Origin: an uncultured Olsenella sp.
GTDB taxonomy: Bacteria > Actinomycetota > Coriobacteriia > Coriobacteriales > Atopobiaceae
Direction of reading: 5' to 3'
Length of the DNA stretch: 64,000 bases
Assembly: GCA_949290055.1 (NCBI GenBank)
Contig: CASEQJ010000001.1
Coordinates: forward strand, 1-64,000
The notes below the pieces were generated by a model. The model searched no databases. It saw only the letters and a list, made by a program, of their open reading frames with translations, and was not told where the DNA came from. The first letter of the stretch is position 1. Each line of letters begins with the position of its first letter. The position numbers and the translations under genes are program-made. Shown here one piece after another: positions 16,459 through 51,676 of this stretch.

Positions 16459-16561
16459 GCGTCCCCCTTCGATCTCACGTAGGGGACTGTACCAGTCTCG
16501 CGCGGTTTTTAGACAGGTTGTACAAAAATCACAGGAGGCCCCGCACGCCAACGCCGCCGGA

Positions 16562-32166: not shown

Positions 32167-32226
32167 GCGTTCTTCTCGCCCGCCCCTCGGGGGCATGTCC
32201 CCCTGTTTGAGCGCGATTCCTGCCAA

Positions 32227-32270
32227 AAGGGCGCCTTGTCCCCGTACAAAAAGGGGGACAAGGCGCCCTT
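32227..32270. terminator. Bidirectional terminator between kup and the GTPase/chaperone operon
   Basis: Perfect 17-bp stem AAGGGCGCCTTGTCCCC with its complement and a 10-nt A-rich loop. It ends 24 nt before the stop of the operon's last gene, so it can stop both converging transcripts. A smaller GGGG...CCCC hairpin lies at about 32188-32203. Confidence 0.85.
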
Positions 32271-32293
32271 CGCTTGCCGTGGGCGCGCCGGCG

Positions 32294-32680: not shown

Positions 32681-32691
32681 GTTGCCACCAC

Positions 32692-34077: not shown

Positions 34078-34091
34078 GCTCGCCCCCTACC

Positions 34092-37000: not shown

Positions 37001-37241
37001 AGACGCTCACCAGCTTGTCGTTCACGTCCTCGCCCTTGAGATAGACGATCTTCTCAAGGCGGAAGAGCGCCATGTCCTCGTAGGGGTCCTCGTCCTCGAC
37101 GAAGGGCAGCGGCGTGGCTCGCGGGAGGTCGGCGAGGTAGCCTCGGTTCACGAGGGAGTCGACCGCGTCGAGGTTCTCGCGCAGCCGCCGCAGCCGATCG
37201 GCACTCTCCCGGTCGATCTTGCTCAGTGCCTTGGCCGCCAT
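34092..37241 (-). CDS. HerA/VirB4-like (DUF87-type) ATPase with Ser/Thr-rich linker
   Basis: 1049 residues. An N-terminal alpha/beta domain (1-230), an extreme Ser/Thr/Gly/Asp linker (about 264-336), then a FtsK/HerA-type motor. Walker A is GSTGSGKSN (529-537), FLVIEPAKGEYK is at 555-566, Walker B is VTVLEEAH (758-765), and a sensor DQSP is near 808. HerA-type ATPases form hexamers that translocate DNA or protein; together with conflict genes they often power a nuclease or secretion step. GGGAGG precedes the ATG, 3 nt after the GAP1-like gene. The low-complexity linker is unusual for this family. Confidence 0.88.
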   Translation of the reverse strand: MAAKALSKIDRESADRLRRLRENLDAVDSLVNRGYLADLPRATPLPFVEDEDPYEDMALFRLEKIVYLKGEDVNDKLVSVYGALSAYGSTAMLVIHGTRGGVSFYLGTRESSFDRRHVSEGIFESSLRGNFPGVEMAACTKNEVKHLMEEAFPSEYRCRSLTSVTVVPSERASHSGEQGGFVQGIEKFIEGMAGQEFTALLLATPVDDERLSLIRRTYEELSTSLSMFREVQRQLSEQESLSVTDGVNDSFSAAISNGFSDTAGSHSDSSLARSKSRDRHRETLLSKGTKGGSSGTTSTETSGTNESHTTSRNDTETRGSGTSHSDSTTTGSSRSLTITQTDKTVSALLERIDRQLERIAACEAYGVWEVGCYFVAGFEHISIMAASLFKALVSGENSQLESAHVNTWPNDRPSFSRLSVVFEYLREARQPNFVHELPLNRAKSFPNVAPTTLVSGEELPLVLGLPRHSVSGVTATSSAEFGRNVLRAGKGAPRRTIELGVVSYMGRESASIPVLLDVDSLTAHCFITGSTGSGKSNTTYQILNELADEKNDVPFLVIEPAKGEYKLAFGRLPDVNVFTTNPRYNDMLHVNPFAFPEEIHVLEHLDRIIEVFSACWPLYAAMPALLKKAFERAYILHGWDLANSYWVNLGNGRWPTFSDVVRILPELLASSAFSGDTKGDYVGSLVTRVESLTNGLVGQIFTREAVTPEILFDQRTIVDLSRIGSTETKALITGTLILQLNEYRQATSSGTNASLRHVTVLEEAHNLLRRTSTDQSQEGSNVQGKSVEMISNSIAEMRTYGEGFLIVDQSPSAVDMSAIRNTNTKIVMRLPELEDRTAAGASMGLSEDQLAEIAKLPMGCAVVYQNDWLEPVLTKVNRAEALYERTSAKVNDPARHAELVGRVVEELFRQHDEGELSVQPFEVLVRQVQDTATNKRAMRRMISALVYACSKKIDEEKFGMTVARLIGAGDLFEVLAERLPEVDPAAVTTADRRDFDQWKRLAKDSLAHYVRLGSDRLKERVLCNHIVCVCVERSIASWERYDAVRRAFL

Positions 37242-37244
37242 GCT

Positions 37245-39884
37245 CTACCTCCCGCCGAACAGCTTCTTGCCCAGACCGCTCAGGCCACGGCCCTCGTCGA
37301 CGCGCCTCAGCATGTTCCCCAGCAGGCTGCGGGCGTCCGGGTTCACCCTGAAGCCCTTGTCCTCGAGGTCCTTCGGGTCAAAGAAGCGCTGGGCCTCGGC
37401 GCGCACCGCGTCGCGGGCGTCCTTGCGAACCCGCATTGCGCGCTCCGCCACCTCCTCGCACACCTCAAGCGGGTAGAGCGAGGCCGTGCAGGCAAGCACG
37501 ATTCCCAGCGACTCGGCCCCGGTCAGGCGGCGCTTGAGCAGGTCGAGCGCGCGGTCCGCGCAGGCGCACAGGAGCACGCTCGCCTCCCGATTGGAGCTCG
37601 TGAGGTAGGAGGTGAGGTAGGCGAGGTAGCACGTGACGCGCGAGAGGTCGACGACGACCCCGGAAACGCCGACGAGAAACGCCTCGGTCTCCCCGGCGGA
37701 CAGCGGGTTGGCACGCAGGCGCGGCATGACGTGGTAGGCGTAGCTCACGGCGTCGTCCGGCCGGTTTGCGTTGCAGGAGCGGCGCAGCTGCGCGGACAGC
37801 ACGAGACGAAGCATTCGCGGACCCATGACCTCGTGGTGGGCGAGCGCTTCATACCCGAGGAGATAGCGCGACAGGCGCTCCTCGTCCGGGGTCGGGTTGA
37901 GCGGGTCGACGCCCCCCTCGAGCGCGAGCCCCGCCGCCCGCATGGCCTCGCCAAACTGCTCGCCGCAGAGCAGCTCGTCGTTCTCCGCGCCGTCGGCGAC
38001 CGAGGCGACGAAGGCCGTCAGGGCGCGCTCGCCGTCCCGGTCGCCGCGCGAGACAAGCTCGTCGACGTAGGCGCGGGCGACCGCGGGGTAGCACGCGGTC
38101 CCCATGGCGGCGTTCGAGAACAGGTCCCCCGAGCAGCACGCACGGTAGAGGGAGGCCACCTCGCGCGAGCTCGCCCGCTGGCTGGCCGCACGCGCGAAGA
38201 GCCGCGCGGCGCCCTCGTACTTCCCGCAGGAGCCGAGCCAGCGCATGAGCAGAAGCGTGGCGTCGTCGCTCGAAACGTCAGCGCCGTCGGCGAGCGCGTC
38301 CCACAGGGCCCGCAGGCAGGCCTCGTCGCCCGGACGGGCGGCGTCGCAGGCCTCGAGAGTCGCGTTGGCGACACGGACGTAGAGCTCGGCGACGTCGACG
38401 AACGGCTCGCTCACCAGTCGCGCGGCACGCAGCCCCTCCTGCGGACCAAAGCGGTACGCGGCCCCCACGAGGCTCCTCACCAGAGAGCTGACCGCGCCCC
38501 CGAGGTCGAGCTCGCTCGCCTCGCAGCCCCGGTCCATGACGGCCACCATGGTCGAGCCGCACAGCACGCAGAGCTTCTCGGCGCTCGAGGCGCTCTCCCC
38601 GAGCGCCACGCCACGCTCGCCGCCGAGTATGGAGAGCGGGTCGACGCCGGACTGCGCGCAGGAGCCCAGGATCTCGTCGAGCCGCGAGGAGAACTCCTCC
38701 TCCGAGACGGAGCGGTCGGAGATCAGGCCGGCGACCGTCGCACCGGCGACCTCCTCCACGCGCCGGCGGTTGTCCGAGCCGAGCGAGCGTCCCGCCCGGA
38801 GCAGGTAGCCGAGCGCGCCCAGAAGGATTGCGGGGCTGGCCCCCTCAAGCTGGTCGAGACCGTCCGTCAGGCGATTGGCGAGCTGCTCGCGCGTGGCCTC
38901 GTCGGCATGCGCCTCGGCGAAGGGCAGGGCGAGCGCGTAGGTCCCCTCGTCGTCGGGCAGGTCGTCGCGCAGCAGCGACCAGAGCTGAAACGCCGCCTCA
39001 AAGAGCCCCAGGTTGAAGCCAATGTCGCAGTGGTCGCCCACAAAAGCCGTGAAGTCGAGCAGCTTCGCGGGATTGAGCTCGAGCGACATGGTCACAAAGT
39101 CCAGGTAGTCGTCGGCGGGAACGTAGTCGGCGTCGGCGGGGGCGGCGGGGTCAAAGGTCACGCAGGACGCGAGCGCGTAGTCCTGGGCGCGCCCAAGGGC
39201 CTCTCGCGTGGTCCCGCAGGCGTCTCCGCCCACCAGGCCCGGCTGCTCGCAGGCGAGAAGGAACGACACCTCGCGGCTCATGCGCAGGGGAACCGCCAGG
39301 CACGCGGCCGCGAGCCAGCGGGCGGCCTCCTCGGGGTCCGCCACGATCACCAGCTGCTTGTCCTCGGTCTTCGCCCGGAAGAGTGAGGTGACCAGCTCGA
39401 GAAGGCGGTCGACGCGCTCGCCCTCGCCCAGCCAGTCGACAATGCGCTCGCAGGAGAGCTCGCCGGTCGGGCGAATGTCGACCGTCGGCAAATAGTCCGG
39501 CTTCTCGGGGCTCGCGACCTCGGGACCCATGGACGAGACGAACACCGGCGACCCAAAGGCCTCGACCGGGGCGAAGGTCAGCTCCTCGGCCGAGAGGAGC
39601 ACGGACTGACGCAGCACGTTGCCGCTTCTGCCCTGCGGGCCCTGGTAGTCGTAGGGAAGCTTGGTGTTGTAGGTGAAGAGGCACTTGTCGCCAAGCAGGT
39701 GGTAGCCGAGCGCCGGGCGGCCGACCTCGCTGGGGTCCGGGTCGGGAAAGAGCTGGGAGAAGCCGGAGCCGTACTCCGCCTTGCACGCGGCAAGCCCCTC
39801 GTCATAGGAGAAGACCTGGAGGCCGTCCGAGACGCCGTCCATGCCCCGGCGGCAGGAGGTGTATATGACCTGGTGCGCCCGCAT
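37245..39884 (-). CDS. GAP1-like (GTPase-associated protein 1) large protein
   Basis: 879 residues from ATG at 39884, with AAGGAG 11 nt upstream. The N-terminus reads AHQVIYTSCRRGMDGVSDGL, and LPYDYQGPQGRSGN and VYVRVANATLEA-like helical repeats follow later. The opening matches, from memory, the GAP1 N-terminal domain type 1 (IYTS...G...GFQV). The rest is helical and repeat-like with no catalytic motif. GAP1 proteins are defined by co-occurrence with paired GTPases in predicted conflict systems. Here the gene lies 5 nt after a zinc-ribbon GTPase gene, as expected. A scaffold or GTPase-regulating role is inferred. Confidence 0.72.
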   Translation of the reverse strand: MRAHQVIYTSCRRGMDGVSDGLQVFSYDEGLAACKAEYGSGFSQLFPDPDPSEVGRPALGYHLLGDKCLFTYNTKLPYDYQGPQGRSGNVLRQSVLLSAEELTFAPVEAFGSPVFVSSMGPEVASPEKPDYLPTVDIRPTGELSCERIVDWLGEGERVDRLLELVTSLFRAKTEDKQLVIVADPEEAARWLAAACLAVPLRMSREVSFLLACEQPGLVGGDACGTTREALGRAQDYALASCVTFDPAAPADADYVPADDYLDFVTMSLELNPAKLLDFTAFVGDHCDIGFNLGLFEAAFQLWSLLRDDLPDDEGTYALALPFAEAHADEATREQLANRLTDGLDQLEGASPAILLGALGYLLRAGRSLGSDNRRRVEEVAGATVAGLISDRSVSEEEFSSRLDEILGSCAQSGVDPLSILGGERGVALGESASSAEKLCVLCGSTMVAVMDRGCEASELDLGGAVSSLVRSLVGAAYRFGPQEGLRAARLVSEPFVDVAELYVRVANATLEACDAARPGDEACLRALWDALADGADVSSDDATLLLMRWLGSCGKYEGAARLFARAASQRASSREVASLYRACCSGDLFSNAAMGTACYPAVARAYVDELVSRGDRDGERALTAFVASVADGAENDELLCGEQFGEAMRAAGLALEGGVDPLNPTPDEERLSRYLLGYEALAHHEVMGPRMLRLVLSAQLRRSCNANRPDDAVSYAYHVMPRLRANPLSAGETEAFLVGVSGVVVDLSRVTCYLAYLTSYLTSSNREASVLLCACADRALDLLKRRLTGAESLGIVLACTASLYPLEVCEEVAERAMRVRKDARDAVRAEAQRFFDPKDLEDKGFRVNPDARSLLGNMLRRVDEGRGLSGLGKKLFGGR

Positions 39885-39889
39885 GGCGA

Positions 39890-41125
39890 TCACTGCTCCT
39901 TCGTCACGAGGCCGTAGCGCGACATGAGCCACAGCAGCGGGTCCTCGACGCGGTGGGGTCGCGGCCGGCGGACGTTGCCGTCGGTGTCCGGCGCGTTCCC
40001 CAGGCCCAGGCTCGAGACCGCGAAGAACGAGACGTCCTTGAAGTTGCCGCGAATGTCGGTGATCAGGGCGCCCTCGCCCCAGTTCTCGAGCAGCGTCCGC
40101 ATTTCGGCGTCCACGGCCTGCTGGTCGCCCTCGACGAACGCCCCGTGCGCGCAGTGCGGGCTCGGCTGCTGGATCGTGAGGGCGTCGCCGGCAATGGGCA
40201 GCAGCGCGTCGAACTTGGGGAAGGTGACGGCGACCGGAATGTCGATCGCGGCGCCCTGCTTTATGCCGCGCGCGTTGCGAATCAGCGTCGTGACGTTGGC
40301 AAGGACGCTCGAGAAGGTCTTGGTGCTCTCGACGCCGGCGAGACTCGTGAGCGCACCGCCGGTCTCCGCCTCGAGCTGGGCGCGAACGCTCGGGATCTGC
40401 AGGGGGTCGGCGAGGAAGATAATCCCCTTGGAGTGGCGAAGGTAGCCGCCGACCGTCGCAATGTCCTCCTCGTTCTGCAGGTCCTCGCCTGCGGCGTCGA
40501 AGAAGGAGAGCGTGAAGGACTTCTTGCGCCCAAAGCTGTGGTCAAGGTAGTTCCAAATGTAGATCAGCGGAATCTTGTCGTTCTCGCGCACGCCACTGAC
40601 GTCGCTTCTGGTGAGCTCGAGCAGCTTCTGGTCCTCGTAGAGCGGCCGGTACTTCGTTTCCTGGTAGAGGCTCTCCACGTCGTAGCCGCCGCTGCCCAGC
40701 GACACGAAGTTGCGGATCTCGGCGCCCATGGAGTGGCCCACCCGCTTGCGGAGCTCGTCGATCAAAACCGCAATGTAGTGGCTCTTGCCCGAGCCGCGCG
40801 TGCCGACGACCGAGATTATGTTGTCGGTCCCCGTGAGCGTGGACTCGGGAAGGGGGTTGTGGCAGTGGGGGCAAATGGGCTTGGGCGTATGGTCGTGGCA
40901 GACGTCGCAGGAGACGTCCGAGGAGCGGCCGAACAGCGAGCGGGAGGTGGGCTTGAAGACGTGGCCGAGCCCCTGGTCGCGCGGCCAGCGCATGTACTGG
41001 GAGTAGAGGTGGTCCGGCTCGGCCGCGGAGGGGCAGCGCTTGTTCACGCAGCGGTACTCTATGCTGCCGCGCTCGACCTCCTGGAAGCAGAACGGGCAGA
41101 CGATCTTGTTGAACAGGGTAATCAT
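39890..41125 (-). CDS. Zinc-ribbon GTPase (DO-GTPase-like), soluble
   Basis: 411 residues. Two N-terminal zinc ribbons (C10, C13, C26, C31 and C73, C76, C85, C88) precede a GTPase domain. G1 is GTRGSGKS (108-115), G3 is DAAGE (210-214), and a degenerate G4 is PKFD (303-306). These resemble the double-GTPase families found with GAP1. GAGGAGG precedes the ATG. It lies between the FN3 protein and GAP1-like genes. The zinc ribbons suggest a docking or nucleic-acid sensing role that would control the GTP cycle; this is inference. Confidence 0.8.
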   Translation of the reverse strand: MITLFNKIVCPFCFQEVERGSIEYRCVNKRCPSAAEPDHLYSQYMRWPRDQGLGHVFKPTSRSLFGRSSDVSCDVCHDHTPKPICPHCHNPLPESTLTGTDNIISVVGTRGSGKSHYIAVLIDELRKRVGHSMGAEIRNFVSLGSGGYDVESLYQETKYRPLYEDQKLLELTRSDVSGVRENDKIPLIYIWNYLDHSFGRKKSFTLSFFDAAGEDLQNEEDIATVGGYLRHSKGIIFLADPLQIPSVRAQLEAETGGALTSLAGVESTKTFSSVLANVTTLIRNARGIKQGAAIDIPVAVTFPKFDALLPIAGDALTIQQPSPHCAHGAFVEGDQQAVDAEMRTLLENWGEGALITDIRGNFKDVSFFAVSSLGLGNAPDTDGNVRRPRPHRVEDPLLWLMSRYGLVTKEQ

Positions 41126-41149
41126 GGGGTACCTCCTCGGACGAAGGGA

Positions 41150-44100
41150 CTAGGCGCGGTAGCCGCAGCTCGACATGAAGCTCGGGGTCGGGCCGCTTGC
41201 GGGATACGCCTCGACGTTCAGGTTCTTCTGCTTGGGGAGCTCGACCGTGTAGGAGTAGGACCCCCTGGCCTCGACCGGGCCGAACGTGGCGAGCGTCGCC
41301 GCGTCGGGCGCCATGTGCGGAACGCGACCGACGCAGCAGGCAATGCGAACCTCCGGCAGGGTGAAGACCGCGGAGCCCTCGGCCGACCTGAACGTGAACG
41401 TGGCGCTCGGCCTGCCGATCAGCGGACGCGAGACCGAGAACGTGTAGACGATCTTGCCGCGCGGGGTCTGGTTGACCTCGACCTGGGCGGGATCGGAGAA
41501 GACGAAGTCGCCCGGGGCTCCGGAGCGGGCGAAGACCGTGACGCAGAGGTGGTCGCCCTTGGCCCCGGGAACGGTGAGGCGGCCGTCGCGCCGCCACTGC
41601 TTGACCGGTACGAGCTTGCGCAGCACGCCCGGCTCGTCGGACTCGAGGTCGTCCACGAAGCGGCTCTCGCTGACAAGGACCATGAAGCCGTTGACGCCCG
41701 GGTCCTTGCAGTCGACGTCAATGCTCAGGGCGCCGTTGAGCACGCTCGCCTCGCGAATCTTCACCGCGCCGCCCGTGGCAATGCGCGCCCGCGCGCCCAC
41801 GACCGCCGAGCCACCGTACACGCCGACCACGAACGCGTGGACCGAGCGCTCGTCGCGCCACGAGAGCGTGCCCAGACCGTCGCTGCGGCTGTCCACGGGC
41901 AGAATCTCAAAGTCGCGTTCGAGCTCGTCGAGGGTGAGGGCGCTTCCTTCGGCGGGGACGTCCTCGCGCCGCTCGGCGGCGAAGAAGCGCACCGGCGCCC
42001 CCGTGCCCTCCCAGGTCAGCTCGTAGCTGCCCTCGCCCGTCGAGCGGGCGTGGAGGTGGGTGGGGTAGGTCGTCACGTCGAGCGGCGTGGCGGAGCAGCG
42101 CGCGGAGGCGCCGCGCGCCTCGGCGGCGCCGGAAACGCGGTAGGCGACGTCCACGACGAACGTGTAGGTCACCCCGTCGCTCAGGCCCTCGAGGACGCAG
42201 CTGTGGGGGCCGTGAAGCTCCCGAGGGGGCACCGCGCCCGAGGCCTCGCTGACCCGGACGTGGGCGGACTCGGGCAGGGGCCTCCAGCTCAGCTCGACGC
42301 GCCCGTGGCTCGGAACGGCGCGCAGCCCCTCGACGCCCGGGGCAACGACCACCGGCGCAGAGCCCGGCGAGGGGCGCGAGGAGACCTCGCCGCGGTGGGT
42401 GACGACGCGATAGTGGCAGGGACGGCCCACCGGGGCGGACTCGTGGACGAACGTGGTCGACTTCGTCGTGCCGAGCGAGCGCTCGCCAAGACCGCCCTCC
42501 TCCTGGAGCAGGACCTCGTAGACGAGGGCGCCCTTCGAGCGGCTCCGCTGCCACGAGACGTGCACGGAGCCCTTTGACTGGTCGGCGACCGCCCGCACGC
42601 TCGAGGCGGGAAGGGGCGGGTGCGCGGCAAGGAAGCTGAGGGCGGACGGGTGGTCCGCGCAGAGGGCCAGCGCCTGGGCGCAGAGCTCGGCGGCGTCCTC
42701 GGGGTCGGCGGAAGCACCTGCCCGGCGCACGACCTCGTCGGCCTCCTCGACGTAGCGCGAGACTCGACGCTCCTGTCCGGCGAGGTGGACCCCGTCGAAG
42801 CCGGGCATGGACTGCGCGCGGCGCAGGGCGTCGCGCGCCGCGACGAAGCGGCTCTCGGCAAGCGAGGAGGCGAGCTCCTTGGCGAGCGGCCCCGCTACGC
42901 CCTCGAGGCGCTCCACCTCGCGGCGGGTGCCGGCGAGGGTGGGCAGCGCGGGCCAGCTCCTCGACGCCTCCTCGAGGCACTGGCGCGCGCCCGCGAAGTC
43001 AAGGCGCGTCGCCTGTCGCCGCGCCTGCTCGCACAGGGAGCTCGCCTCGTCCAGGGCGAGGCCGAGCGGGGTGCCGCACTTGGGGCAGCGGTCCTCCGTG
43101 TTGGGGCTCTTGGTGTGGCAGCCCGGGCACTCCACCACGAGCGGCAGGCCGCAGCGCGAGCACACGGCGGCGCCCTTCTCGTTCACGTGGCCGCAGCGGC
43201 ACACGGTCTTGGAGGAGATCTCCGCGTCGCGCTCGAGCGCTATGCCCTTCTCCTGGCAGTAGCCCACCAGCAGCGGGCGCGCGTCCGCCTTCGTGTCAAC
43301 GAGAAGCGCGAGGCGCTCGATTGCCTCGCGCTGCGAGGCGACGCTCAGCGTCTTGTTGCTCAGGCCGGCAATGTCGGCAAACTCCTGCAGCGCCTCCTTG
43401 AGCGCCTTGCGCCTCAGGTAGGCGTCGTAGCCCTTGCGCGACTCGTCGCTCGCGAACGCCTTGCGGCACAGCGCCTCGAGCGAGGACGCCGCGGCGTCCT
43501 CCGCCGTGTTTCTCCGCTGACGGGCCTTCAGCGCCTGGGCGGCGGCGACCAGGTCGGCGTTGGAGGCCCGACGCGGGTCGCCGACGCCCTCCGGCTGGGC
43601 AAAGTCATAGAGCGTGGCGGCGTCGAACAGCGGGAGGTCCTTGTCCGCCGAGTTGTAGCTCCTCTCCTCCGGCAGCCTGGTCTTGCAGTACTTCTCGTAG
43701 GCGTCGACGGCCTTCTGGTCCGTCTCCGCCGCGGGCTTGTCCCAGGAGAGGCCGAGGTGCTGGGCCCGCCGCTCCACCAGCGCCTCGTCGAGCGAGTAGT
43801 CGATCACGCCGGTCTTCTTGCGAACCTGCTTGTTGACGAACTTGGCGATCTGCTCCCTCCCGGAGGCGATCGTCCCGTCCTCGTCGCTCGCCGTCTTGAG
43901 CGCTCCGTCCAGCTCTCCGTACACGACCGTCGCGGCCTCACGCGCAAACTCCGCCACGTGGGCGGAGTCCGCCAGGGCCTCCTTGATCTCGGCGTAGTGC
44001 TCGCTCAGCTGCTTGTAGTAGTTTGCGTTGTCGCCTCTCGCCGACTTGCTCCCCCACTCCCCGGAGAACTTGCTCTCGAGCAGCTCGAGACAGGTCCGCG

Positions 44101-44161
44101 AGTCCGGCACGGGGTCGAACGGGGCCCCGATCGCAAGCAGCCAGTTGCTTCCCTTTGGCAT
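41150..44161 (-). CDS. Zinc-ribbon and FN3 repeat protein with J-like helical N-terminus
   Basis: 1003 residues. The N-terminal 75 residues (SKFSGEWGSKSARGDNANYY, then KQLSEHYAEIKEALAD) have the helical look of J-like domains found beside Hsp70 genes, but no HPD triplet is present. Residues 321-362 hold two zinc ribbons (CRC...CSRC and CPGC...CPKC). A helical TPR-like stretch follows (370-520), then about three FN3-like beta domains (530-760) and a beta-rich C-terminus (to 1003). It precedes the soluble GTPase gene by 24 nt. It could be the J-type adaptor or substrate receptor of the chaperone pair. No enzyme motif. Confidence 0.72.
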   Translation of the reverse strand: MPKGSNWLLAIGAPFDPVPDSRTCLELLESKFSGEWGSKSARGDNANYYKQLSEHYAEIKEALADSAHVAEFAREAATVVYGELDGALKTASDEDGTIASGREQIAKFVNKQVRKKTGVIDYSLDEALVERRAQHLGLSWDKPAAETDQKAVDAYEKYCKTRLPEERSYNSADKDLPLFDAATLYDFAQPEGVGDPRRASNADLVAAAQALKARQRRNTAEDAAASSLEALCRKAFASDESRKGYDAYLRRKALKEALQEFADIAGLSNKTLSVASQREAIERLALLVDTKADARPLLVGYCQEKGIALERDAEISSKTVCRCGHVNEKGAAVCSRCGLPLVVECPGCHTKSPNTEDRCPKCGTPLGLALDEASSLCEQARRQATRLDFAGARQCLEEASRSWPALPTLAGTRREVERLEGVAGPLAKELASSLAESRFVAARDALRRAQSMPGFDGVHLAGQERRVSRYVEEADEVVRRAGASADPEDAAELCAQALALCADHPSALSFLAAHPPLPASSVRAVADQSKGSVHVSWQRSRSKGALVYEVLLQEEGGLGERSLGTTKSTTFVHESAPVGRPCHYRVVTHRGEVSSRPSPGSAPVVVAPGVEGLRAVPSHGRVELSWRPLPESAHVRVSEASGAVPPRELHGPHSCVLEGLSDGVTYTFVVDVAYRVSGAAEARGASARCSATPLDVTTYPTHLHARSTGEGSYELTWEGTGAPVRFFAAERREDVPAEGSALTLDELERDFEILPVDSRSDGLGTLSWRDERSVHAFVVGVYGGSAVVGARARIATGGAVKIREASVLNGALSIDVDCKDPGVNGFMVLVSESRFVDDLESDEPGVLRKLVPVKQWRRDGRLTVPGAKGDHLCVTVFARSGAPGDFVFSDPAQVEVNQTPRGKIVYTFSVSRPLIGRPSATFTFRSAEGSAVFTLPEVRIACCVGRVPHMAPDAATLATFGPVEARGSYSYTVELPKQKNLNVEAYPASGPTPSFMSSCGYRA

Positions 44162-44170
44162 GAGCTCCCC

Positions 44171-46288
44171 CTAGAGCCGAATCTCGGAACCGCTGGCGAT
44201 CGACCTGCCGATCGTGGAGAACGTCTCCCCAAGCTGGGAGAAGTCGAAGAGGCCCGCGTAGCTGTCGGAGGTGGATATGCTCCGCAGGAACTCCGGGTCC
44301 GCATAGGCGACGCCAATACCTATGATCATGACGTTCTCTTTCCTGAGCTCCTGCGAAATCTGCTGCGCCTCCTGGCAGGCGGGCATGCTCCACACGCCGT
44401 CGGTGAGGAGCAGCAGACAGTTTGCCATGGAGCGCTTGTACCTCTCTTGGCCGGAGTACCAGTCGCTGTAGTTTCTGAGCGGGTCGTTCGTGTTGCCACC
44501 GCCGAGGTTAGCCTCTCTCAGAACCTCTGGGTCGGAGCAGGCGAGCAGCTTCTCCGGGCCGGTCCCCACCTCCGCAATAATCTCAGCCCTGTCGGAGAAG
44601 CACATGAGCCCCACCTCGACCGGGGCCCCCTCGATCGAGGAGAGGAAGCCCCTCACTGCCTCGTGGGCAGCTTCGAACCCCCGCCCATACATGGACCCCG
44701 AGGTGTCTATGGCGATCATGACCCGCATGGGCGCGCACGCAGGCTCGGAGGCCTCGTTCTCGAGGGGCGAGCGGTCAAAGCGCGAGAGGTCGCCCTCGAC
44801 CTCGGCGCGCTCCACCGTGAGCTCGCGGCCGAGCGCGGGCTGGTCGGCACTCACCTCGATCGTCGCGTTCTCCGTGTAGGAGTAGGTCACGCGGACCTTC
44901 GCGTCGCCCTGCTCGCGCTCAATGCCGGTGACCACGTACTTGCCGACCACGTCGTTGTCGAGGGGACGGGGCTCGGAGCCCTGGAGGACGTAGACCTCGA
45001 GCCGTCCCGTTCCCCATGCGGGAACGGGAATGAGGTACTCGCGGGACTCCGAGGCGGGAACGGTCGCGTTCTTGGGAATGATCGTCGAGTTCACGTAGCG
45101 GGAGCGGTCGGGGCTCTCGGCGATCATGCCCATGGGGTGCGCGGTGCAGTCCACGAGCCGCGGGGCGGAGCCGCCCAGAAGGAAGCGCGGGGAGTCCCCC
45201 TCGGCCTCCGCGAGCTGGCTCGCGTAGATCGCGGCACCCAGGGCGACCGCCTCGTCGGGGTTCACCCCGCCGAGCGGCGGCCGGCCGGTCTGCTCCTCGA
45301 GGTAGGCAGCGACCTGCGGCATGCGCGTGGAGCCACCTATGAGCACCACGCCGTCCAGGTCAGCCCAGGCAAGCGGACGACCCAGGGACTCGGCGGCCTC
45401 GGCGATCGTCTCCTCGCAGAGGTCCGTCGTCATGGTCAGGAGGTGCGCGGTCGCCTCTTCGAACTCCCGGCGCGCGACCTCGACCGTCCCGGTGGCCCCG
45501 GCGACCGAGACCCGCGCCCTTGTGCGCGGCCGGGCGGAGAGCTCGCGCTTAGTCCGCTCGGAGAGCACGGCGAGGGTGCCTAGATCGGAAAGCGACAGGT
45601 CCAGGTCCCCGCGGTCCATGTCGAGCCCCTCGCAGAGGCCCTCGAGAAGCATGTCGGTGAGTATGGCGTCCCAGTCGCGGCCCCCGAGGTGGTGGTTCCC
45701 GTTCGAGGCGAGGACGTGGATCTCGTCGGCCGAGATGCGGGCGACGGTCACGTCGAACGTGCCGCCGCCGAGGTCGTAGATCAGCACCGTCCGGTCCGCT
45801 CCGGCGCCGGTGAGGCCGTAGGCGTAGGCCGCCGCCGAGGGCTCGTTCAGGACCCCGAGCACGCGCACGCCGGTGCGACGCAGCGCCTCCTGGGTCGCCT
45901 CGCGCTGCGTGGCGCCGAAGTAGGCCGGGACCGTGACCACGGCCGCGTCGATCTCGACACCGTTGGCGGCGGAGACGTCGGCGAGCAGGTTGCGCAGGAA
46001 TATGGCGGAGAGATCGGTCGCGTCGAACGCCATGTTCTGGAGCCGCTCGACGTAGGTCGACTCCCCCATGCTCCGCTTGTAGAACGAGGCGGCGTTGGCG
46101 TCGCCCATGAGCTGGCTCTCCTTGGCCTCGTCGCCCCAGAGAATGCTCCCGTCCTCGCGGACGGCAACGACCGAGGGCGTCGTCGTCTCACCGCTCGAGT
46201 TCGGCAGAATGTGGGGCCTGCCGTCCTCACCCACGCGCGCCACGGCGCTGAACGTGGTTCCCAGATCAATTCCGACAACGATTCCCAT
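44171..46288 (-). CDS. Hsp70-vWA fusion protein
   Basis: 705 residues. A nucleotide-binding Hsp70 domain (1-375) has DLGTT (8-12), DLGGGTFD (about 177) and IGGSTRMPQV. A shortened beta substrate-binding region (about 380-500) follows. The normal helical lid is replaced by a von Willebrand A domain (about 520-700) with an intact MIDAS: DTSGSM, GGNTND and LLLTDG. A vWA domain binds a protein ligand through Mg2+, so the fusion would couple ATP-driven chaperone action to ligand capture. GGGAGGA precedes the ATG; it lies between the DnaK and FN3 protein genes in the operon. Confidence 0.9.
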   Translation of the reverse strand: MGIVVGIDLGTTFSAVARVGEDGRPHILPNSSGETTTPSVVAVREDGSILWGDEAKESQLMGDANAASFYKRSMGESTYVERLQNMAFDATDLSAIFLRNLLADVSAANGVEIDAAVVTVPAYFGATQREATQEALRRTGVRVLGVLNEPSAAAYAYGLTGAGADRTVLIYDLGGGTFDVTVARISADEIHVLASNGNHHLGGRDWDAILTDMLLEGLCEGLDMDRGDLDLSLSDLGTLAVLSERTKRELSARPRTRARVSVAGATGTVEVARREFEEATAHLLTMTTDLCEETIAEAAESLGRPLAWADLDGVVLIGGSTRMPQVAAYLEEQTGRPPLGGVNPDEAVALGAAIYASQLAEAEGDSPRFLLGGSAPRLVDCTAHPMGMIAESPDRSRYVNSTIIPKNATVPASESREYLIPVPAWGTGRLEVYVLQGSEPRPLDNDVVGKYVVTGIEREQGDAKVRVTYSYTENATIEVSADQPALGRELTVERAEVEGDLSRFDRSPLENEASEPACAPMRVMIAIDTSGSMYGRGFEAAHEAVRGFLSSIEGAPVEVGLMCFSDRAEIIAEVGTGPEKLLACSDPEVLREANLGGGNTNDPLRNYSDWYSGQERYKRSMANCLLLLTDGVWSMPACQEAQQISQELRKENVMIIGIGVAYADPEFLRSISTSDSYAGLFDFSQLGETFSTIGRSIASGSEIRL

Positions 46289-46328
46289 GAGCGTCCTCCC
46301 ACGCGCCGCCTCGTTCTCGTGCCAGGTC

Positions 46329-48035
46329 TTACACCATCATCGTCATGGCGGTGATCGCCTCGCGCGCCTCCTGGATCTGCTCGGAGCTGAGGCCGCCGGT
46401 CACGACGAGCTGAATGTTGCACTGCTTGCCCGAGCTAGGCTCCACGGCCGTGACGTCGAGCATGCCCTCCTCGCTCAGGACGAACGTGACGTCGATCGGG
46501 GAGCCGGCGGGGAGGTTCGTGCCGGTAAGGTCGATCTGGGCGGAGCCGAGCGGGTCGCGGTCAATGTCGACGACGTCCTGCTCGAAGTCGTTCTCGTAGA
46601 CCTGCAGGAGCACCGAGGTCTGCCCGTCGGCCACCGTGCCAAACCTCCTGGTGACCTCATAGGCGCCGAGACTGTGGTCAATGCGCTGGTTCTTGAGAAT
46701 GAGGTTGTTGACCTTCAGCACGTTGTCGGCAGAGTCGATCGCCTCGACGCCGTAGCTCTTCGAGGTGACCGTCTGGATCACGATGGCGTTGGCCGCCGTG
46801 TCGGCGTCCACGAAGTGCGTGGCAATGTTGTTCTCGCCCACCACGCGCTGGCGCTCGACGGTGTTGGTCTCCTGGTCGACGACGTCGACGAAGGCCTCCT
46901 CCTCGTTGCCGCCCTCGGCGGAGGCGACGTTGATCTGCGCCTGAATGCCGGCCGCGAGCTGCAGGGCGTAGCGGACCGCGCCCTTGGCGACGGCCTCGTC
47001 GGGCTCGTTCTTCTCGAGCGGAACGCCCGGGAACTCCTCGGCGAGCCTGCGCTCGACCTGCGGCATCTTCGTCGAGCCGCCCACGAGGAGAATGCGCTGG
47101 GCTTCCACGCCCTTGGACTTGGCGTTGTCAATGCAGGCGTGCATTATGCTCATGGTGCGGTCGAGCTCGGCGAGGGTCATGTCGTCGAACTCCTCGGCGG
47201 TGAGGGTGATCTTGACCGGCTTGCCCGTGAGGTTGAGGACCGCGGACGCCTTGGGCTTCTGCGAGAGGGCGATCTTGAGCTTCTCGGCCTCGCTCTGGAA
47301 GGTCTGCATGGCGTACTCGTCGAAGTCGTCGTCAAAGCCGGCCTGCTCGCGGAACTCGTCCTGGAGGAAGCTCATGACGCGCGCGTCCCAGTCGCCGCCG
47401 CCGAGGTTCTTGTCGCCGTCGTTGCAGACGACGTCAATGTGGGTGGTGCCGTCGGCGTCGTGGGAGATCTCGACGACCGAGGCGTCAAAGGTGCCGCCGC
47501 CGAGATCGAACACGGCGACGACCTCGTCCTTGTCCGTGCGGTCGCAGCCGTAGTTGATCGCCGCCGCCACGGGCTCCTGCAGCAGGCCGTAGACGTTGAG
47601 GCCGGCAATCTCGGCCGCGGCGAGGGTGGCCTTCTTCTCGGCGTCGCCGAAGTAGGCGGGCACCGTGATCACGCAGCCGTCAAAGCGCATGGGCATGAGG
47701 GCCTGGGCGTCGCCGGCGACCTTCTTGAGGACGAACGCGGAGATCTCCTCGGGAGAGTAGGTCTTCCCGTCGACCGTGATCGCGACGGGGTTGACGCCGA
47801 TTATGCGCTTCACGAAGGACGCCGTGCGGTCGGGGTCGATCAGCGCATTGTCCTTGGCGACCTGGCCCGCGTCCCAGATCGTGGGGTCGTCGAGGTCGAA
47901 GTGGACGACGGAGGGCGTGGTGCGCTCGCCCTCGCGGTTGGGCTGGACGACCGGCTCGCCGTTCTCGTTTGCGTAGGCAATGCAGGAGTAGGTCGTGCCG
48001 AGGTCAATGCCGACGACGGTGGTCATGTCGTTCAT
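46329..48035 (-). CDS. DnaK-like Hsp70 chaperone, short form
   Basis: 568 residues from ATG at 48035 (MNDMTTVVGIDLGTTYSCIA), preceded by AAAGGAAC. The ATPase domain has DLGGGTFDASVVEIS and LLVGGSTKMPQV. The substrate-binding beta domain is present and the C-terminal lid is short, so it is smaller than housekeeping DnaK (about 610-640). It sits next to a GrpE-like gene but without a canonical dnaJ. It is probably an operon-specific paralog rather than the cell's main DnaK. Confidence 0.88.
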   Translation of the reverse strand: MNDMTTVVGIDLGTTYSCIAYANENGEPVVQPNREGERTTPSVVHFDLDDPTIWDAGQVAKDNALIDPDRTASFVKRIIGVNPVAITVDGKTYSPEEISAFVLKKVAGDAQALMPMRFDGCVITVPAYFGDAEKKATLAAAEIAGLNVYGLLQEPVAAAINYGCDRTDKDEVVAVFDLGGGTFDASVVEISHDADGTTHIDVVCNDGDKNLGGGDWDARVMSFLQDEFREQAGFDDDFDEYAMQTFQSEAEKLKIALSQKPKASAVLNLTGKPVKITLTAEEFDDMTLAELDRTMSIMHACIDNAKSKGVEAQRILLVGGSTKMPQVERRLAEEFPGVPLEKNEPDEAVAKGAVRYALQLAAGIQAQINVASAEGGNEEEAFVDVVDQETNTVERQRVVGENNIATHFVDADTAANAIVIQTVTSKSYGVEAIDSADNVLKVNNLILKNQRIDHSLGAYEVTRRFGTVADGQTSVLLQVYENDFEQDVVDIDRDPLGSAQIDLTGTNLPAGSPIDVTFVLSEEGMLDVTAVEPSSGKQCNIQLVVTGGLSSEQIQEAREAITAMTMMV

Positions 48036-48065
48036 GGGTGGGTTCCTTTCCACGTGGGGGCAGGG

Positions 48066-48848
48066 CTAGGCCTGCGCGCCCTCCTTGTAGCCGTACACCT
48101 TGACGCTCGCCTGGGAGATCACGCTCCCGTTGAGCTCGTAGCCCTGCGAGAGGACCTCCGCCACCCTTTGGTGGAGCGAGCGGTCCCCGGTCGTCACCCT
48201 GCTCACCACGCGGTGGCGGCCGCTCTCAAAGCGGTCCCCAACCTCAGGAGAGAACGGGCGGACGGAGTAGTCCTCCAGAAGCTCCACGAGCATGTCGCGG
48301 TAGGTCTCAAAGTCCTCGAGGCCAACGCTGGCGTCGGGGTCGTCCTGCGAGCGCGCGTAGGTGACCGTCGTGCCCATCTTGTCCGCGACGTCGACCACCT
48401 TGAGCAGCAGCGGGGTCATGATCTTGTCGTAGACCCCCGCGCGGTAGCGCTCGATCTCCTCGGTCTGGTTCTTGAGGGTGGCCGTCTCGAACTCGTTGCG
48501 GTCGATCTTCTTCTTGAAGAGCTCCCTCATGGCGCCAAGCTCGCCGAGAAGCGCCTCGCGCAGGTCACCCACCGCCTCGAGGACGGGGTCCGCGCCGGCG
48601 TCCTCGGTCGGCTCCGGGGCGTCCTCGGCCGGCTCCTCGGCGCTCGCGTCCTTCTCGCCCGCGGGCTCCGCCGCCGGCTCGCCTTCCTCCTCGGGGGCCT
48701 CGACGGGCTCCTCGGGCTCGGCTGCGGCCTCCTCGGGGGCCGCTGCGGGCGCCTCCTCGGTCACCTCGGCCTTGACGGGCTCGACCGGCTCAACGGGCTC
48801 CTCACGCTTGGGGATTGGGGGCGGCGCCGCCCACTCGTCGTCGTACAT
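48066..48848 (-). CDS. GrpE-like nucleotide-exchange factor with long acidic N-terminus
   Basis: 260 residues. Residues 1-90 are Pro/Ala/Glu repeats. A coiled-coil follows, then the GrpE beta domain: VLSQGYELNGSVISQASVKV matches the GrpE C-terminal signature (GY.L...vi.pA.V.V). GrpE releases ADP from Hsp70. It lies between the membrane GTPase and DnaK genes, 30 nt before the latter, so it probably serves both Hsp70s of the operon. A GTCCTTCTCGCC copy occurs inside the repeat. Confidence 0.85.
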   Translation of the reverse strand: MYDDEWAAPPPIPKREEPVEPVEPVKAEVTEEAPAAAPEEAAAEPEEPVEAPEEEGEPAAEPAGEKDASAEEPAEDAPEPTEDAGADPVLEAVGDLREALLGELGAMRELFKKKIDRNEFETATLKNQTEEIERYRAGVYDKIMTPLLLKVVDVADKMGTTVTYARSQDDPDASVGLEDFETYRDMLVELLEDYSVRPFSPEVGDRFESGRHRVVSRVTTGDRSLHQRVAEVLSQGYELNGSVISQASVKVYGYKEGAQA

Positions 48849-48850
48849 GG

Positions 48851-50530
48851 CTACTCCTCACCACTCTCGCGTGCGTTCTTCTCTGCCTCGCGCTCCTGGG
48901 CGCGCCTCTCGGCCTCGTCCCTGCGCTCCTGGGCCTGGCGCTCGGCCGCGTTTCTCTTCTCGCGACGCGGGTCGATCGCAAACGGCACCGCCCCCGCGTG
49001 GTCCACGAGGCCGCCGCCGAACCCGAGCGCCCTGGTGAGCGCCCGGTCGGAGCGCGCGAGAATCCATGAGAACGGCTCGTCAACGTGAACGGGCGCAAAG
49101 CTCCCGGCAAGGCGCTCGTGGCCGATCGCGCTCACGACGAACAGCCGCTGCGCCTTGAAGTTGCCCTGCAGCATGTTCAGGAAGTTCCCCATGCCGTGAC
49201 GTTCGAGGAAGGCGCGCGCGAGGGCGTCGTCCACGTCGTAGTCGGGGCAGGCCGGGTTGGCCTGGAGGTAGGCCTCGCGCGCCCGCTCGTCAAAGTAGGG
49301 CGCGAGTCCCGGCAGGTCGGCCTTGCTCAGCACGACCGCAAGGGGAAGGGAGATCTGCTCGCCCTGGCCGACGCCGCTCACCTGACGGATCTTCTCGACG
49401 AAGTTCGAGAGGACCGTGTCGGGGTACTCGCGCGCCGTGACGGCCGAGTCCGCCGAGGAGAGGCGCTCGGAGAGCTCGTCCGAGACCTCGGGAATGCTCA
49501 TGGGGTCAACGAGGAAGATCGCGCCCGTCGCATAGGCGTACTGCAGCTGCGTCTCGTGCTCCTCGCCCTTGAGGAAGGTCTCGCCGGCAACGTCGTAGAC
49601 GTGCAGGAGGCGCTGGGGCGAAAGCCCGCGCTTCCTGACGAAGAAGCTCAGGGAGAACGCGCTCGGCCGGTTGAGGTCGGTCGCCTCGCGCGTCATCTCG
49701 GTCGAGCCGCTCCGGTAGCAGTCCTCGAGCTCCCGGTACAGCTTCCGCTTCTCCGCGTCCAGAAACTCGGTCTCGTACCCACGCGACTCCGGGAGCTCGT
49801 CAAGGAGCAGGTGCGACAGGGCGGCTATGTAGGTGGTCTTGCCCACCGAGCGGCTGCCGACGACCGAGACGCTCAGGGTGCGCGCGTCTCCCGTCGAGAC
49901 CTGACGCGCGCACGCGGGGTTGGGGCAGCGCTGCTCGAGCATGGAGCGGCGGGCGCGCTTGCCCGAGGAATCCTTCACGGTCGAGAAGAACGTCGCGGGC
50001 ATGAGCTGGCCGCAGGTGCAGCGGTGGAAGAAGATTCCGAAGGTGTTGGGGCGCAGGTAGCTGTGAACCCGCCCGCAGCTGGGGCACACGTAGCCCGGCT
50101 GCAGGTATATGTTCTTGCAACGGTCGCACGCATAGGTCACGTGCAGGATTGAGCGGTAGGCGCCGTCGAGGGCCTTGGCGATCCAGAGCAGCACGTACAC
50201 GATCGTCATGACGACGAGGATCACGAGGGAGTGCACGAACGAGAGGACGACGGTGACCAGCGTGCCAAACACCAGAATCGACAGAATGCCAAAGAGGTAG
50301 AAGATCGTGTAGACCAGCTTCATGAGGAGGAACTTGTCCGACGCCCAGACCAGCCCCATTCTTCCGGAGAGGTCGCTCATCGCCACCCGGTCACCCATGA
50401 ACGACTCGCGAATGGTCGCGCCCAGGTCAACAAAGCCCTTGTCGAGCCAGTAGTTCCTCGTGGAGGGCTCCTCCGGGAGCAGCTCGGCGCTGCGCGCGTA
50501 CTGCTGTGCGGTCAGCGAGCGAATTCTCAT
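48851..50530 (-). CDS. Membrane-anchored zinc-ribbon GTPase (DO-GTPase-like)
   Basis: 559 residues. The ATG at 50530 was chosen for GGGAGGTGA. Order: cytoplasmic N-terminus, two transmembrane helices (about 68-118), a zinc-ribbon array (C135, C138, C149, C152; C171, C173; C202, C207), then a GTPase with G1 GSRSVGKTT (225-233), G3 DVAGE (about 316) and G4 SKADL (about 405). A highly charged C-terminal tail (EKRNAAERQAQERRDEAERR) ends it. It is paired in the operon with the soluble GTPase but is membrane-bound, so the system probably acts or senses at the inner membrane. Confidence 0.82.
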   Translation of the reverse strand: MRIRSLTAQQYARSAELLPEEPSTRNYWLDKGFVDLGATIRESFMGDRVAMSDLSGRMGLVWASDKFLLMKLVYTIFYLFGILSILVFGTLVTVVLSFVHSLVILVVMTIVYVLLWIAKALDGAYRSILHVTYACDRCKNIYLQPGYVCPSCGRVHSYLRPNTFGIFFHRCTCGQLMPATFFSTVKDSSGKRARRSMLEQRCPNPACARQVSTGDARTLSVSVVGSRSVGKTTYIAALSHLLLDELPESRGYETEFLDAEKRKLYRELEDCYRSGSTEMTREATDLNRPSAFSLSFFVRKRGLSPQRLLHVYDVAGETFLKGEEHETQLQYAYATGAIFLVDPMSIPEVSDELSERLSSADSAVTAREYPDTVLSNFVEKIRQVSGVGQGEQISLPLAVVLSKADLPGLAPYFDERAREAYLQANPACPDYDVDDALARAFLERHGMGNFLNMLQGNFKAQRLFVVSAIGHERLAGSFAPVHVDEPFSWILARSDRALTRALGFGGGLVDHAGAVPFAIDPRREKRNAAERQAQERRDEAERRAQEREAEKNARESGEE

Positions 50531-50555
50531 GCGTGTCACCTCCCTCGGTACGCGG

Positions 50556-50774
50556 CTACGAGCGGCGGTTCGACGTGATCGTATGCTTGCTGAAAGCCCT
50601 CGCATAGCTCGTGATCGCCATGGCGGCGCCGTATATCACCGCGAGGAGCACCGTAATCGCAAAAATCGCCGTCGCGGAGGCGACCACCGCGGGAATCACG
50701 TACGGGATTATGATCGCGGTGATAACCCAGTAGATGAACCAGATTACGAGTATGGCAATAACCAGATATCCCAT
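50556..50774 (-). CDS. Small two-helix membrane protein
   Basis: 72 residues, two hydrophobic helices (about 2-30 and 33-55) and a basic C-terminus. GAGGAG precedes the ATG. It is the second gene of the operon, 25 nt before the membrane GTPase, and may be a membrane partner of it. Family not recognised. Confidence 0.75.
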   Translation of the reverse strand: MGYLVIAILVIWFIYWVITAIIIPYVIPAVVASATAIFAITVLLAVIYGAAMAITSYARAFSKHTITSNRRS

Positions 50775-50806
50775 GTGAGCTCCTCAGTTGCGCGCCTCTT
50801 GACCCG

Positions 50807-51256
50807 TCACACCGTGACCGTCCATGAGGACAGGGCCGTGAACAGAGAGTCGAGTGCGTTCGGGTTTGTCAGGAAGTAATAGATCAGAAAGGCGGCGACC
50901 GCTCCCGAGACCAGGGCGGCACCTATGCCGAGCCGCTTGTCCTTCTCGCGCTGAATCTCGTCCTCGGTCGGAGCGGTGGGAGCCGCAGAGGCGGGCGAGG
51001 GCGCGGCGGACGGGGACGGGGTCGAAGACGGGGTCGGGCTCGGGGTCGAAGTCGGGGCAGGCTTCGCATGGGCAGCTGGCTTTGGCGCTGGCTTTGGCGA
51101 CGGAGCGGAGCTCGGTGCGGGACTTGGGGCCGGAGCGGGCTTCGCATGGGCCGCGGGCTTAGGCGTCGGCTTTGCCCCGGCGGGCTGCGGTGCGCCGCAG
51201 TACGGACACACCTTCATGCTGTCGGACAGGTCCTTTCCGCACGAAACGCACTTCAT
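50807..51256 (-). CDS. Zinc-ribbon / Pro-Ala-rich spacer / membrane-helix protein, first gene of the operon
   Basis: 149 residues. An N-terminal zinc ribbon (CVSC...CPYC, residues 3-20) is joined by a long Pro/Ala/Lys/Ser spacer with repeats of KPAAHAKPAP to a C-terminal transmembrane helix (about 110-128). AGGGGG precedes the ATG. The layout is a tethered zinc ribbon, matching the zinc ribbons on both GTPases and on the FN3 protein, so these may share one recognition theme. No clear -10/-35 pair was found upstream. Confidence 0.8.
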   Translation of the reverse strand: MKCVSCGKDLSDSMKVCPYCGAPQPAGAKPTPKPAAHAKPAPAPSPAPSSAPSPKPAPKPAAHAKPAPTSTPSPTPSSTPSPSAAPSPASAAPTAPTEDEIQREKDKRLGIGAALVSGAVAAFLIYYFLTNPNALDSLFTALSSWTVTV

Positions 51257-51676
51257 GGCATCGCCCCCTTCACGACCGTTATTCCGGTTTCAGCTTTTCC
51301 GCTTCCTTACGATAGCGACTCAGCCCCCCACAATTTGCGAAAATTCGACAAGCGTTCCTCCCCTGTTACAACCCTAACGTAGGCCGCCAAGATTGCGCAG
51401 GTTTTGGGTTTTCGCCAAAGCAGTGTCGCCGAGAAGCGCGTTTTTGAGACTAACCCTGAGGTTGTGGGGCAAACGAGTTATGTCGGCCGCCTCGGCGGGA
51501 GGTTCTTCTCGCCAGATTTGCGAATTTAGCCACGCTTTCCAAGATTGTGGGCAACAAGTTCTATGCCTTACCGAGAAGGGCATCAAACTTGTTGCCCACA
51601 ACCAAAGAGAAGGCCCGGGGGTTTCGGCGGGGCGCGCGCAATCCCGACCTAGGGCAGCAGGTCGAGAAGAACGGCG
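51257..51676. other. 420-bp intergenic region upstream of the operon
   Basis: No credible gene. It holds the presumed operon promoter, which was not resolved. An ATTTGCGAA sequence near 51333 recurs near 51517, with a similar TTTTGCGAATC at 27333. Three to four copies of the 25-nt repeat and two GAGAAG-type motifs are also present. It is richer in A+T than its surroundings. Confidence 0.6.
51469..51603. repeat. Intergenic repeat island B (25-nt repeats, same set as at 27.4 kb)
   Basis: Copies at about 51469-51493 (plus, one extra G), 51543-51567 (plus) and 51579-51603 (minus) fit TGGGCAACAARTTTKATGC. The last two pair over about 20 bp with a short loop. A weaker copy starts near 51399. It lies about 210-350 nt upstream of the GTPase/chaperone operon and after the citrate synthase stop. 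Island A lies at a similar distance upstream of pgm. Confidence 0.75.

What the first reader, a model, noticed from the sequence alone, without database searches (positions are those of the whole stretch)
44171..48848. Hsp70-vWA fusion beside a second Hsp70 and a GrpE, without a canonical DnaJ
The fusion replaces the Hsp70 lid with a vWA domain that keeps its full MIDAS (DTSGSM, GGNTND, LTDG). Two Hsp70s and one GrpE in tandem suggest a heteromeric, operon-dedicated chaperone. The vWA domain may recruit a substrate or target instead of a J-protein.
Basis: partly seen in the sequence, partly recalled or inferred. Interest (0 to 1): 0.75.

Follow-up and report, generated by a model that had tools for sequence, protein, structure and literature searches.

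The report
Hsp70 lid replaced by vWA domain
A gut actinobacterium carries a mobile gene cluster, of a kind predicted to fight invaders, in which two specialised Hsp70 chaperones have lost the residues that answer to ordinary DnaJ helpers, and one of them has swapped its lid for a vWA ligand-binding domain; this suggests a chaperone engine rewired into a private switch.

Summary
The fusion is real. Window 44171-46288 (-) is one 705-aa ORF: Hsp70 nucleotide-binding domain, substrate-binding beta domain, then a vWA domain where the lid should be. Seven genomes, including an isolate (Bifidobacterium criceti), have the same ORF in the same gene order, so it is not a frameshift or mis-assembly. The operon is TM DO-GTPase, GrpE, Hsp70, Hsp70-vWA, zinc-ribbon/FN3 protein, DO-GTPase2, GAP1: the 'HSP70 theme' of GAP1-N2-type DO-GTPase conflict systems (Kaur et al. 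2020). It sits in a ~19.5-kb island that four genus mates lack precisely. The Hsp70-vWA fusion is not mentioned in that paper's text. New here: all 16 Hsp70s of these systems keep the ATPase residues but lack both DnaK residues (R167, Q378) that bind the HPD aspartate; 15 of 15 comparison Hsp70s keep both. The neighbouring FN3 protein has a weakly supported J-like segment without HPD. I read it as a dedicated Hsp70 pair uncoupled from housekeeping DnaJ, with vWA as a nucleotide-gated docking module. Identity is well supported; mechanism is inferred; defence function is untested. Novelty: new variant of a known kind.

The parts
32186..51671 (.). mobile island; flanks are contiguous in four genus mates
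   Evidence: blastn of window against L089-L092: Kup gene end (~32167-32185) joins citrate synthase end (~51672-51681) with no island genes between
50807..51256 (-). zinc-ribbon, proline/alanine-rich protein with one predicted TM segment (TM by eye)
   Evidence: PF13240 E 4.7e-7; zinc-ribbon relative at the same place in L033
48851..50605 (-). DO-GTPase with hydrophobic segments (membrane form)
   Evidence: PF19993 E 2.2e-12, 47.6 bits over cut-off 27; syntenic at loci that reach this far
48066..48848 (-). operon GrpE (second GrpE of the genome)
   Evidence: PF01025 E 1.3e-15; genome also has a housekeeping GrpE on C45
46329..48053 (-). partner Hsp70: NBD + beta domain, lid cut to a short helix, linker motif lost
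   Evidence: PF00012 E 1.5e-98; D393 lost 9/9, R167 lost 9/9, Q378 lost 9/9; clade 100/98
44171..46288 (-). Hsp70-vWA fusion, 705 aa
   Evidence: fusion clade of 7 with support 100/99
45203..46288 (-). fusion: nucleotide-binding domain (residues 1-362)
   Evidence: DnaK-like, Z about 41 over residues 1-371 at rmsd 2.6-2.9; D8, K70, E171, D194, T199 equivalents 7/7; R167 to G 7/7; Q378 0/7
44789..45139 (-). fusion: substrate-binding beta domain (residues ~384-500), with conserved segment A-E-S-x-D-R-S-R-Y-V-N-S
   Evidence: beta strands 398-495 in the model; alignment A1
44174..44746 (-). fusion: vWA domain (residues 515-705) in place of the lid
   Evidence: PF00092 E 5e-14, found in 6/6 members scanned; profile hits on solved vWA domains
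41150..44161 (-). FN3 / double zinc ribbon protein, 1003 aa, the variable FNIII component
   Evidence: fn3 29.3 bits over cut-off 25, DZR 29.2 over 27.3
43376..43642 (-). J-like segment without HPD (residues 174-262)
   Evidence: hhalign score 23.5 against J-domains; best of 200 column shuffles 17.7; no Pfam hit; helical in the model
39890..41125 (-). DO-GTPase2, soluble zinc-ribbon form
   Evidence: PF19993 29.5 bits over cut-off 27
37245..39932 (-). GAP1 (likely start about 50 bases inside the ORF)
   Evidence: PF20014 GAP1-M E 1.5e-10; PF20013 GAP1-N2 23.4 bits, just under cut-off 24; the B. criceti counterpart passes both
34092..37241 (-). HerA/FtsK-like ATPase with serine-rich insert, 3 bases after GAP1; only in the window's copy
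   Evidence: DUF87 E 1.8e-14; no match at the other loci
32692..34077 (-). island-end gene of unknown function, very weak HD match
   Evidence: PF01966 17.3 bits, under cut-off 22

Best explanation
This is the chaperone module of a GAP1-N2-type double-GTPase (DO-GTPase) conflict system of the 'HSP70 theme', in a Coriobacteria/Bifidobacterium variant with a second Hsp70 whose lid has been replaced by a vWA domain. Shown by sequence: operon, synteny, mobility, intact ATPase residues, loss of both DnaK residues that bind the HPD aspartate in all Hsp70s of these systems examined. Inferred: both Hsp70s turn over ATP with their own GrpE but ignore housekeeping DnaJ; the FN3 protein, with its HPD-less J-like part, replaces J control and links the Hsp70s to the GTPase/GAP1 switch; the nucleotide state of the fusion's Hsp70 part controls the position or access of the vWA, which uses its metal site to hold a peptide or partner, as vWA co-chaperones do next to MoxR ATPases; the result is controlled assembly of a membrane-near response complex when an invader is sensed.
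For: DO-GTPase2 x2, GAP1, FN3, GrpE and Hsp70 by Pfam, matching the published description. Seven loci in the same order. In the class sample GAP1-M and the fusion occur in the same 5 of 398 genomes. Island with a clean empty site in four genus mates. Both Hsp70 types: ATPase residues intact 16/16, R167 and Q378 lost 16/16 against kept 15/15 in other Hsp70s; D393 kept 7/7 in the fusion, lost 9/9 in the partner. In DnaK, HPD D35 bonds R167 and Q378 (PMC8215388). HPD-less J-like segment in the FN3 protein. Both MIDAS aspartates conserved, the pair that Kaur et al. tie to peptide binding. One copy is flanked by a Wadjet set, JetA/C/D detected.
Against: No experiment on any such system was found, and the conflict role is itself a prediction. 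The MIDAS threonine is not conserved, so metal-dependent ligand binding may be weak or altered in some members. J-likeness rests on one profile comparison (32% probability) and a weak structural match; Pfam sees nothing. No contact between vWA, Hsp70 and GTPase was modelled. Coriobacteria and bifidobacteria are not the multicellular hosts stressed by Kaur et al.
Confidence: 0.6

Rival explanations
1. The fusion is an adaptor, not a chaperone: the Hsp70 part is a slow ATP-dependent switch or multimerising scaffold, and the vWA binds one fixed partner (GTPase, GAP1 or a membrane protein). General peptide binding is lost.
For: No lid; the segment replacing DnaK loop L1,2 (A-E-S-x-D-R-S-R-Y-V-N-S) is strongly conserved, as expected for one fixed ligand rather than many peptides; J-docking residues lost. 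Kaur et al. list HSP70 and tubulin as likely multimer-forming effectors.
Against: GrpE and all ATPase residues are kept, pointing to active nucleotide cycling; the beta domain is kept.
Confidence: 0.25
2. A membrane or cell-envelope stress chaperone of the host, not a conflict system.
For: DO-GTPase with hydrophobic segments and a zinc-ribbon gene with a likely TM segment; the PSP paper notes a DO-GTPase family protein tied to membrane stress.
Against: Island absent from genus mates at a clean empty site, 5 of 398 genomes in the class, one copy flanked by a Wadjet set: the pattern of accessory defence genes.
Confidence: 0.1
3. Decaying genes: relaxed Hsp70s that lost R167/Q378 by drift.
For: Partner Hsp70 has lost the linker motif and most of its lid.
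Against: ATPase residues invariant 16/16, full-length ORFs, fixed G at R167 in 7/7 fusions, well-resolved co-inherited clades.
Confidence: 0.03

Closest known systems
GAP1-N2-type DO-GTPase conflict systems, HSP70 theme (Kaur et al. 2020, PMC7159879)
   Same: DO-GTPases (one membrane form), GAP1, FNIII protein, HSP70, GrpE, second HSP70 in a subset; all present here.
   Different: The text describes the second HSP70 as lacking its peptide-binding domain and the FNIII protein as fused to DnaJ or TPR; here the second Hsp70 keeps the beta domain and carries a vWA, and the J-like part has no HPD. Coriobacteria and Bifidobacterium are not named in the text.
DnaK/Hsp70 chaperones
   Same: NBD and beta domain, ATPase residues, GrpE.
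   Different: No lid, R167 and Q378 lost, altered linker; vWA at the C-terminus.
MoxR-vWA chaperone/co-chaperone pairs
   Same: An ATPase engine works with a peptide-binding vWA.
   Different: Engine here is Hsp70, covalently fused, no AAA+ ATPase of MoxR type in the operon.
CoCoNuT Hsp70-like proteins (CnuD; PMC11090510)
   Same: Hsp70 NBD/SBD units inside GTPase-based defence operons, with vWA genes nearby.
   Different: There Hsp70 motifs are partly degenerate and Hsp70 is fused to McrB/McrC homologues, vWA genes are separate; here ATPase residues are intact and vWA is fused to Hsp70.
Pam16/Tim16 J-like proteins
   Same: J-like domain without HPD beside Hsp70 machinery.
   Different: Mitochondrial; in yeast paired with Pam18, which has a true J-domain. 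The relationship of the FN3 segment to J-domains is only weakly supported here.

Membership tests
GAP1-N2 DO-GTPase system | one or two DO-GTPases | tested here: met
   PF19993 47.6 and 29.5 bits, cut-off 27
GAP1-N2 DO-GTPase system | GAP1 downstream of a DO-GTPase | tested here: met
   GAP1-M E 1.5e-10, gene directly after DO-GTPase2
GAP1-N2 DO-GTPase system | GAP1-N of type N2 | tested here: inconclusive
   23.4 bits, cut-off 24, in the window; the syntenic B. criceti protein scores 53.3
GAP1-N2 DO-GTPase system | FNIII-repeat protein | tested here: met
   fn3 29.3 bits, cut-off 25
GAP1-N2 DO-GTPase system, HSP70 theme | HSP70 plus GrpE in the operon | tested here: met
GAP1-N2 DO-GTPase system, HSP70 theme | FNIII protein typically fused to DnaJ or TPR | tested here: inconclusive
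   no Pfam DnaJ or TPR; J-like by profile comparison only
GAP1-N2 DO-GTPase system | mobile, patchy gene neighbourhood | tested here: met
   5 of 398 genomes; empty site in four genus mates
GAP1-N2 DO-GTPase system | role against invasive elements | not testable with these tools
   predicted by Kaur et al.; no experiment found
DnaK-type Hsp70 (fusion) | ATPase residues | tested here: met
   D8, K70, E171, D194, T199 equivalents 7/7
DnaK-type Hsp70 (fusion) | helical lid (SBD alpha) | tested here: not met
   HSP70 match ends at residue 517, VWA starts at 523; no helical lid in the model
DnaK-type Hsp70 (fusion) | J-domain docking residues R167 and Q378 | tested here: not met
   0/7 and 0/7 against 15/15 and 15/15 in other Hsp70s
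J-domain protein (FN3 protein N-terminus) | HPD tripeptide | tested here: not met
   absent from the N-terminal region of the homologues
J-domain protein (FN3 protein N-terminus) | J fold / profile similarity | tested here: inconclusive
   residues 174-262 score above 200 of 200 shuffles but probability only 32%; residues 1-86 match a DnaJ domain at Z 5.1, rmsd 7.6, weak
vWA domain with MIDAS | DxSxS and the second aspartate | tested here: met
   conserved in all aligned members
vWA domain with MIDAS | middle threonine, conserved across the family | tested here: not met
   present in the window (GGNTND), shifted by one in L038, absent in the others

The most novel reading that the evidence does not exclude
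An Hsp70 that no longer traps peptides under a lid but uses its ATP/ADP cycle to open and close a vWA metal-dependent docking site, controlled not by a J-domain but by an HPD-less pseudo-J scaffold and a GTPase pair: a J-independent Hsp70 signalling switch in bacterial immunity.
Probability: 0.3. Interest if true: 0.8.

Novelty: new variant of a known kind. Interest (0 to 1): 0.58.

Why it matters
It asks whether an Hsp70 can work as a dedicated switch without J-proteins and without a lid. Natural loss of R167 and Q378 on the Hsp70 side, next to an HPD-less J-like partner, is a readable test of the HPD docking model and gives a signature for spotting such systems. A genome-sequenced isolate, B. 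criceti Ham19E, carries a complete operon, so it can be tested.

Tried and rejected
Frameshift or assembly error: rejected, seven genomes. vWA as noise: rejected. Phage or plasmid cargo: no match in phages, plasmids or viral contigs. Single-sequence scan of genome contigs found nothing; the alignment query worked. Foldseek of the FN3 N-terminal model against PDB: no match at E <= 0.001. The first segment (residues 3-92) as a J-domain by profile: not supported, score 12.0, within shuffles. The N-terminus of the simpler systems' FN3 proteins (L064, L076-L078) against J-domains: no signal. Known defence-system models (PADLOC) for the core genes: none convincing; HerA-type hits for the 34092-37241 ATPase only. 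Short repeats at the island ends: only a 14-base match, taken as chance. A sister relationship of the two Hsp70 clades is weakly supported, 63/38, so I do not claim a duplication.

Full report
What is there. On the minus strand the finding's three genes lie inside a compact gene run: zinc-ribbon protein 50807-51256, DO-GTPase 48851-50605, GrpE 48066-48848, Hsp70 46329-48053, Hsp70-vWA 44171-46288, FN3/zinc-ribbon protein 41150-44161, DO-GTPase2 39890-41125, GAP1 37245-39932, HerA-like ATPase 34092-37241. Pfam places HSP70 on residues 4-517 and VWA on 523-678 of the 705-aa fusion. An AlphaFold2 model from six sequences (mean pLDDT 74) shows an Hsp70 nucleotide-binding domain, a beta domain and a vWA Rossmann fold; confidence is lowest in the linkers and parts of the beta domain. 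Residues 1-496 align with E. coli DnaK 1-502 at Z 41, though the two domains sit differently, so rmsd over both is large. The lid is absent.

It is not an artefact. The same fused ORF in the same gene order occurs in Coriobacteriales RGIG5691 (L038), Eggerthellaceae RGIG4335 (L037) and E40 (L039), Ca. Aphodovivens avistercoris (L040, contig edge at the fusion), an unnamed complete genome of the same order, G189 (L033), and Bifidobacterium criceti Ham19E (L041). In two of them (L039, L040) an unrelated gene on the other strand lies between the fusion and the FN3 gene. In a sample of 398 genomes of the class, five carry the fusion and the same five carry GAP1-M. Across 396 genomes of the phylum, GAP1-M occurs in seven others without the fusion.

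What it belongs to. Kaur et al. 2020 describe DO-GTPase/GAP1 systems; about 14% of GAP1-N2 neighbourhoods have HSP70 and GrpE, a subset with a second HSP70 said to lack its peptide-binding domain, and an FNIII protein typically fused to DnaJ or TPR. The core components are met here. The text does not mention a vWA on the HSP70; figures and supplementary tables could not be read. A simpler form with GrpE, one Hsp70, FN3 protein, DO-GTPase, GAP1 and a TM DO-GTPase is found in an actinobacterial genus outside the class, with the same Hsp70 type in four of its genomes.

Mobility. In four genus mates the flanking Kup transporter and citrate synthase genes are contiguous: window ~32.19 kb joins ~51.67 kb. 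The island is therefore about 19.5 kb, with the same G+C as its flanks (0.680 against 0.682-0.684) and no tRNA at its ends. In G038 a Wadjet set (JetA, JetC, JetD detected) lies close to the operon.

The new observation. In DnaK the HPD aspartate of the J-domain bonds R167 and Q378 (PMC8215388), and the D35-R167 salt bridge is critical for stimulation (PMC13012618). I aligned 31 Hsp70s. Comparison Hsp70s, housekeeping and paralogous: R167 15/15, Q378 15/15. Fusions: G at R167 7/7, no Q 7/7. Partner and single Hsp70s of these systems: no R 9/9, no Q 9/9. D8, K70, E171, D194 and T199 are intact in all 16. The linker aspartate D393 is kept 7/7 in fusions and lost 9/9 in partners. Residue positions rest on alignment to the genome's own DnaK and on E. 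coli numbering from my own knowledge. The 16 proteins are related, so these counts are not independent events. The fusion and partner clades are each strongly supported (100/99 and 100/98) and have B. criceti at the base of both. So both Hsp70s appear ATPase-competent and uncoupled from HPD J-proteins, with different roles: only the fusion keeps part of the linker signal.

A J-like neighbour. The N-terminal 310 residues of the FN3 protein are helical (pLDDT 86). Residues 174-262 match J-domains by profile comparison (score 23.5, probability 32%, against a maximum of 17.7 in 200 column shuffles), including a helix-IV-like SxxSRxxYDxYL, but no HPD is present. Residues 1-86 have a J-domain as their top but weak structural match (Z 5.1, rmsd 7.6) and no sequence support. 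Pfam detects neither. This is a lead, not a proof.

The vWA. DxSxS and the LTDG aspartate are conserved; the threonine is not. The two aspartates are those that Kaur et al. link with peptide binding by vWA co-chaperones of MoxR ATPases.

How it most likely works (inference). GrpE and intact active sites imply nucleotide cycling. Loss of lid and of J-docking implies that classical peptide trapping is not the job. I propose that the nucleotide state moves or exposes the vWA, which docks a partner, and that the FN3 pseudo-J scaffold and the GTPase/GAP1 switch decide when. The defence role is taken from the published prediction and the island context and is untested.

Noticed in passing
window 32186-51671: A ~19.5-kb island is missing precisely from four genus mates, whose Kup and citrate synthase genes are adjacent; G+C equals that of the flanks and no tRNA or clear end repeat marks it.
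   Followed up: partly
window 34092-37241: HerA/FtsK-like ATPase with a serine-rich insert starts 3 bases after GAP1; it matches the NCBIfam 'serine-rich protein' model NF033849 far under its cut-off, and PADLOC HerA/mad8 models; it is not at the other loci.
   Followed up: partly
L036:2804-9817: Wadjet genes (JetD, JetC, JetA, and an ORF at 7360-8142 in the JetB place) lie close to the G038 copy of the operon.
   Followed up: no
L033:687-2564: A protein kinase domain protein lies downstream of GAP1 in G189, recalling the kinase theme of GAP1-N2 systems.
   Followed up: no
L019:6905-8008 and L025:1-3147: J-like proteins without HPD (no HPD in one, HPE in the other) sit beside other Hsp70 paralogues that keep R167, so an HPD-less J neighbour does not always go with R167 loss.
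   Followed up: partly
window 45086-45121 (residues 390-401 of the fusion): The segment replacing DnaK loop L1,2 is almost invariant (A-E-S-x-D-R-S-R-Y-V-N-S) in the coriobacterial fusions, unusual for a promiscuous peptide site.
   Followed up: no
window 12028-16551: 1507-aa BadF/BcrAD-type CoA-activase (DUF2229) ORF whose early residues (44-130) score as IS110 transposase; probably an overlong start call or a chance resemblance.
   Followed up: no
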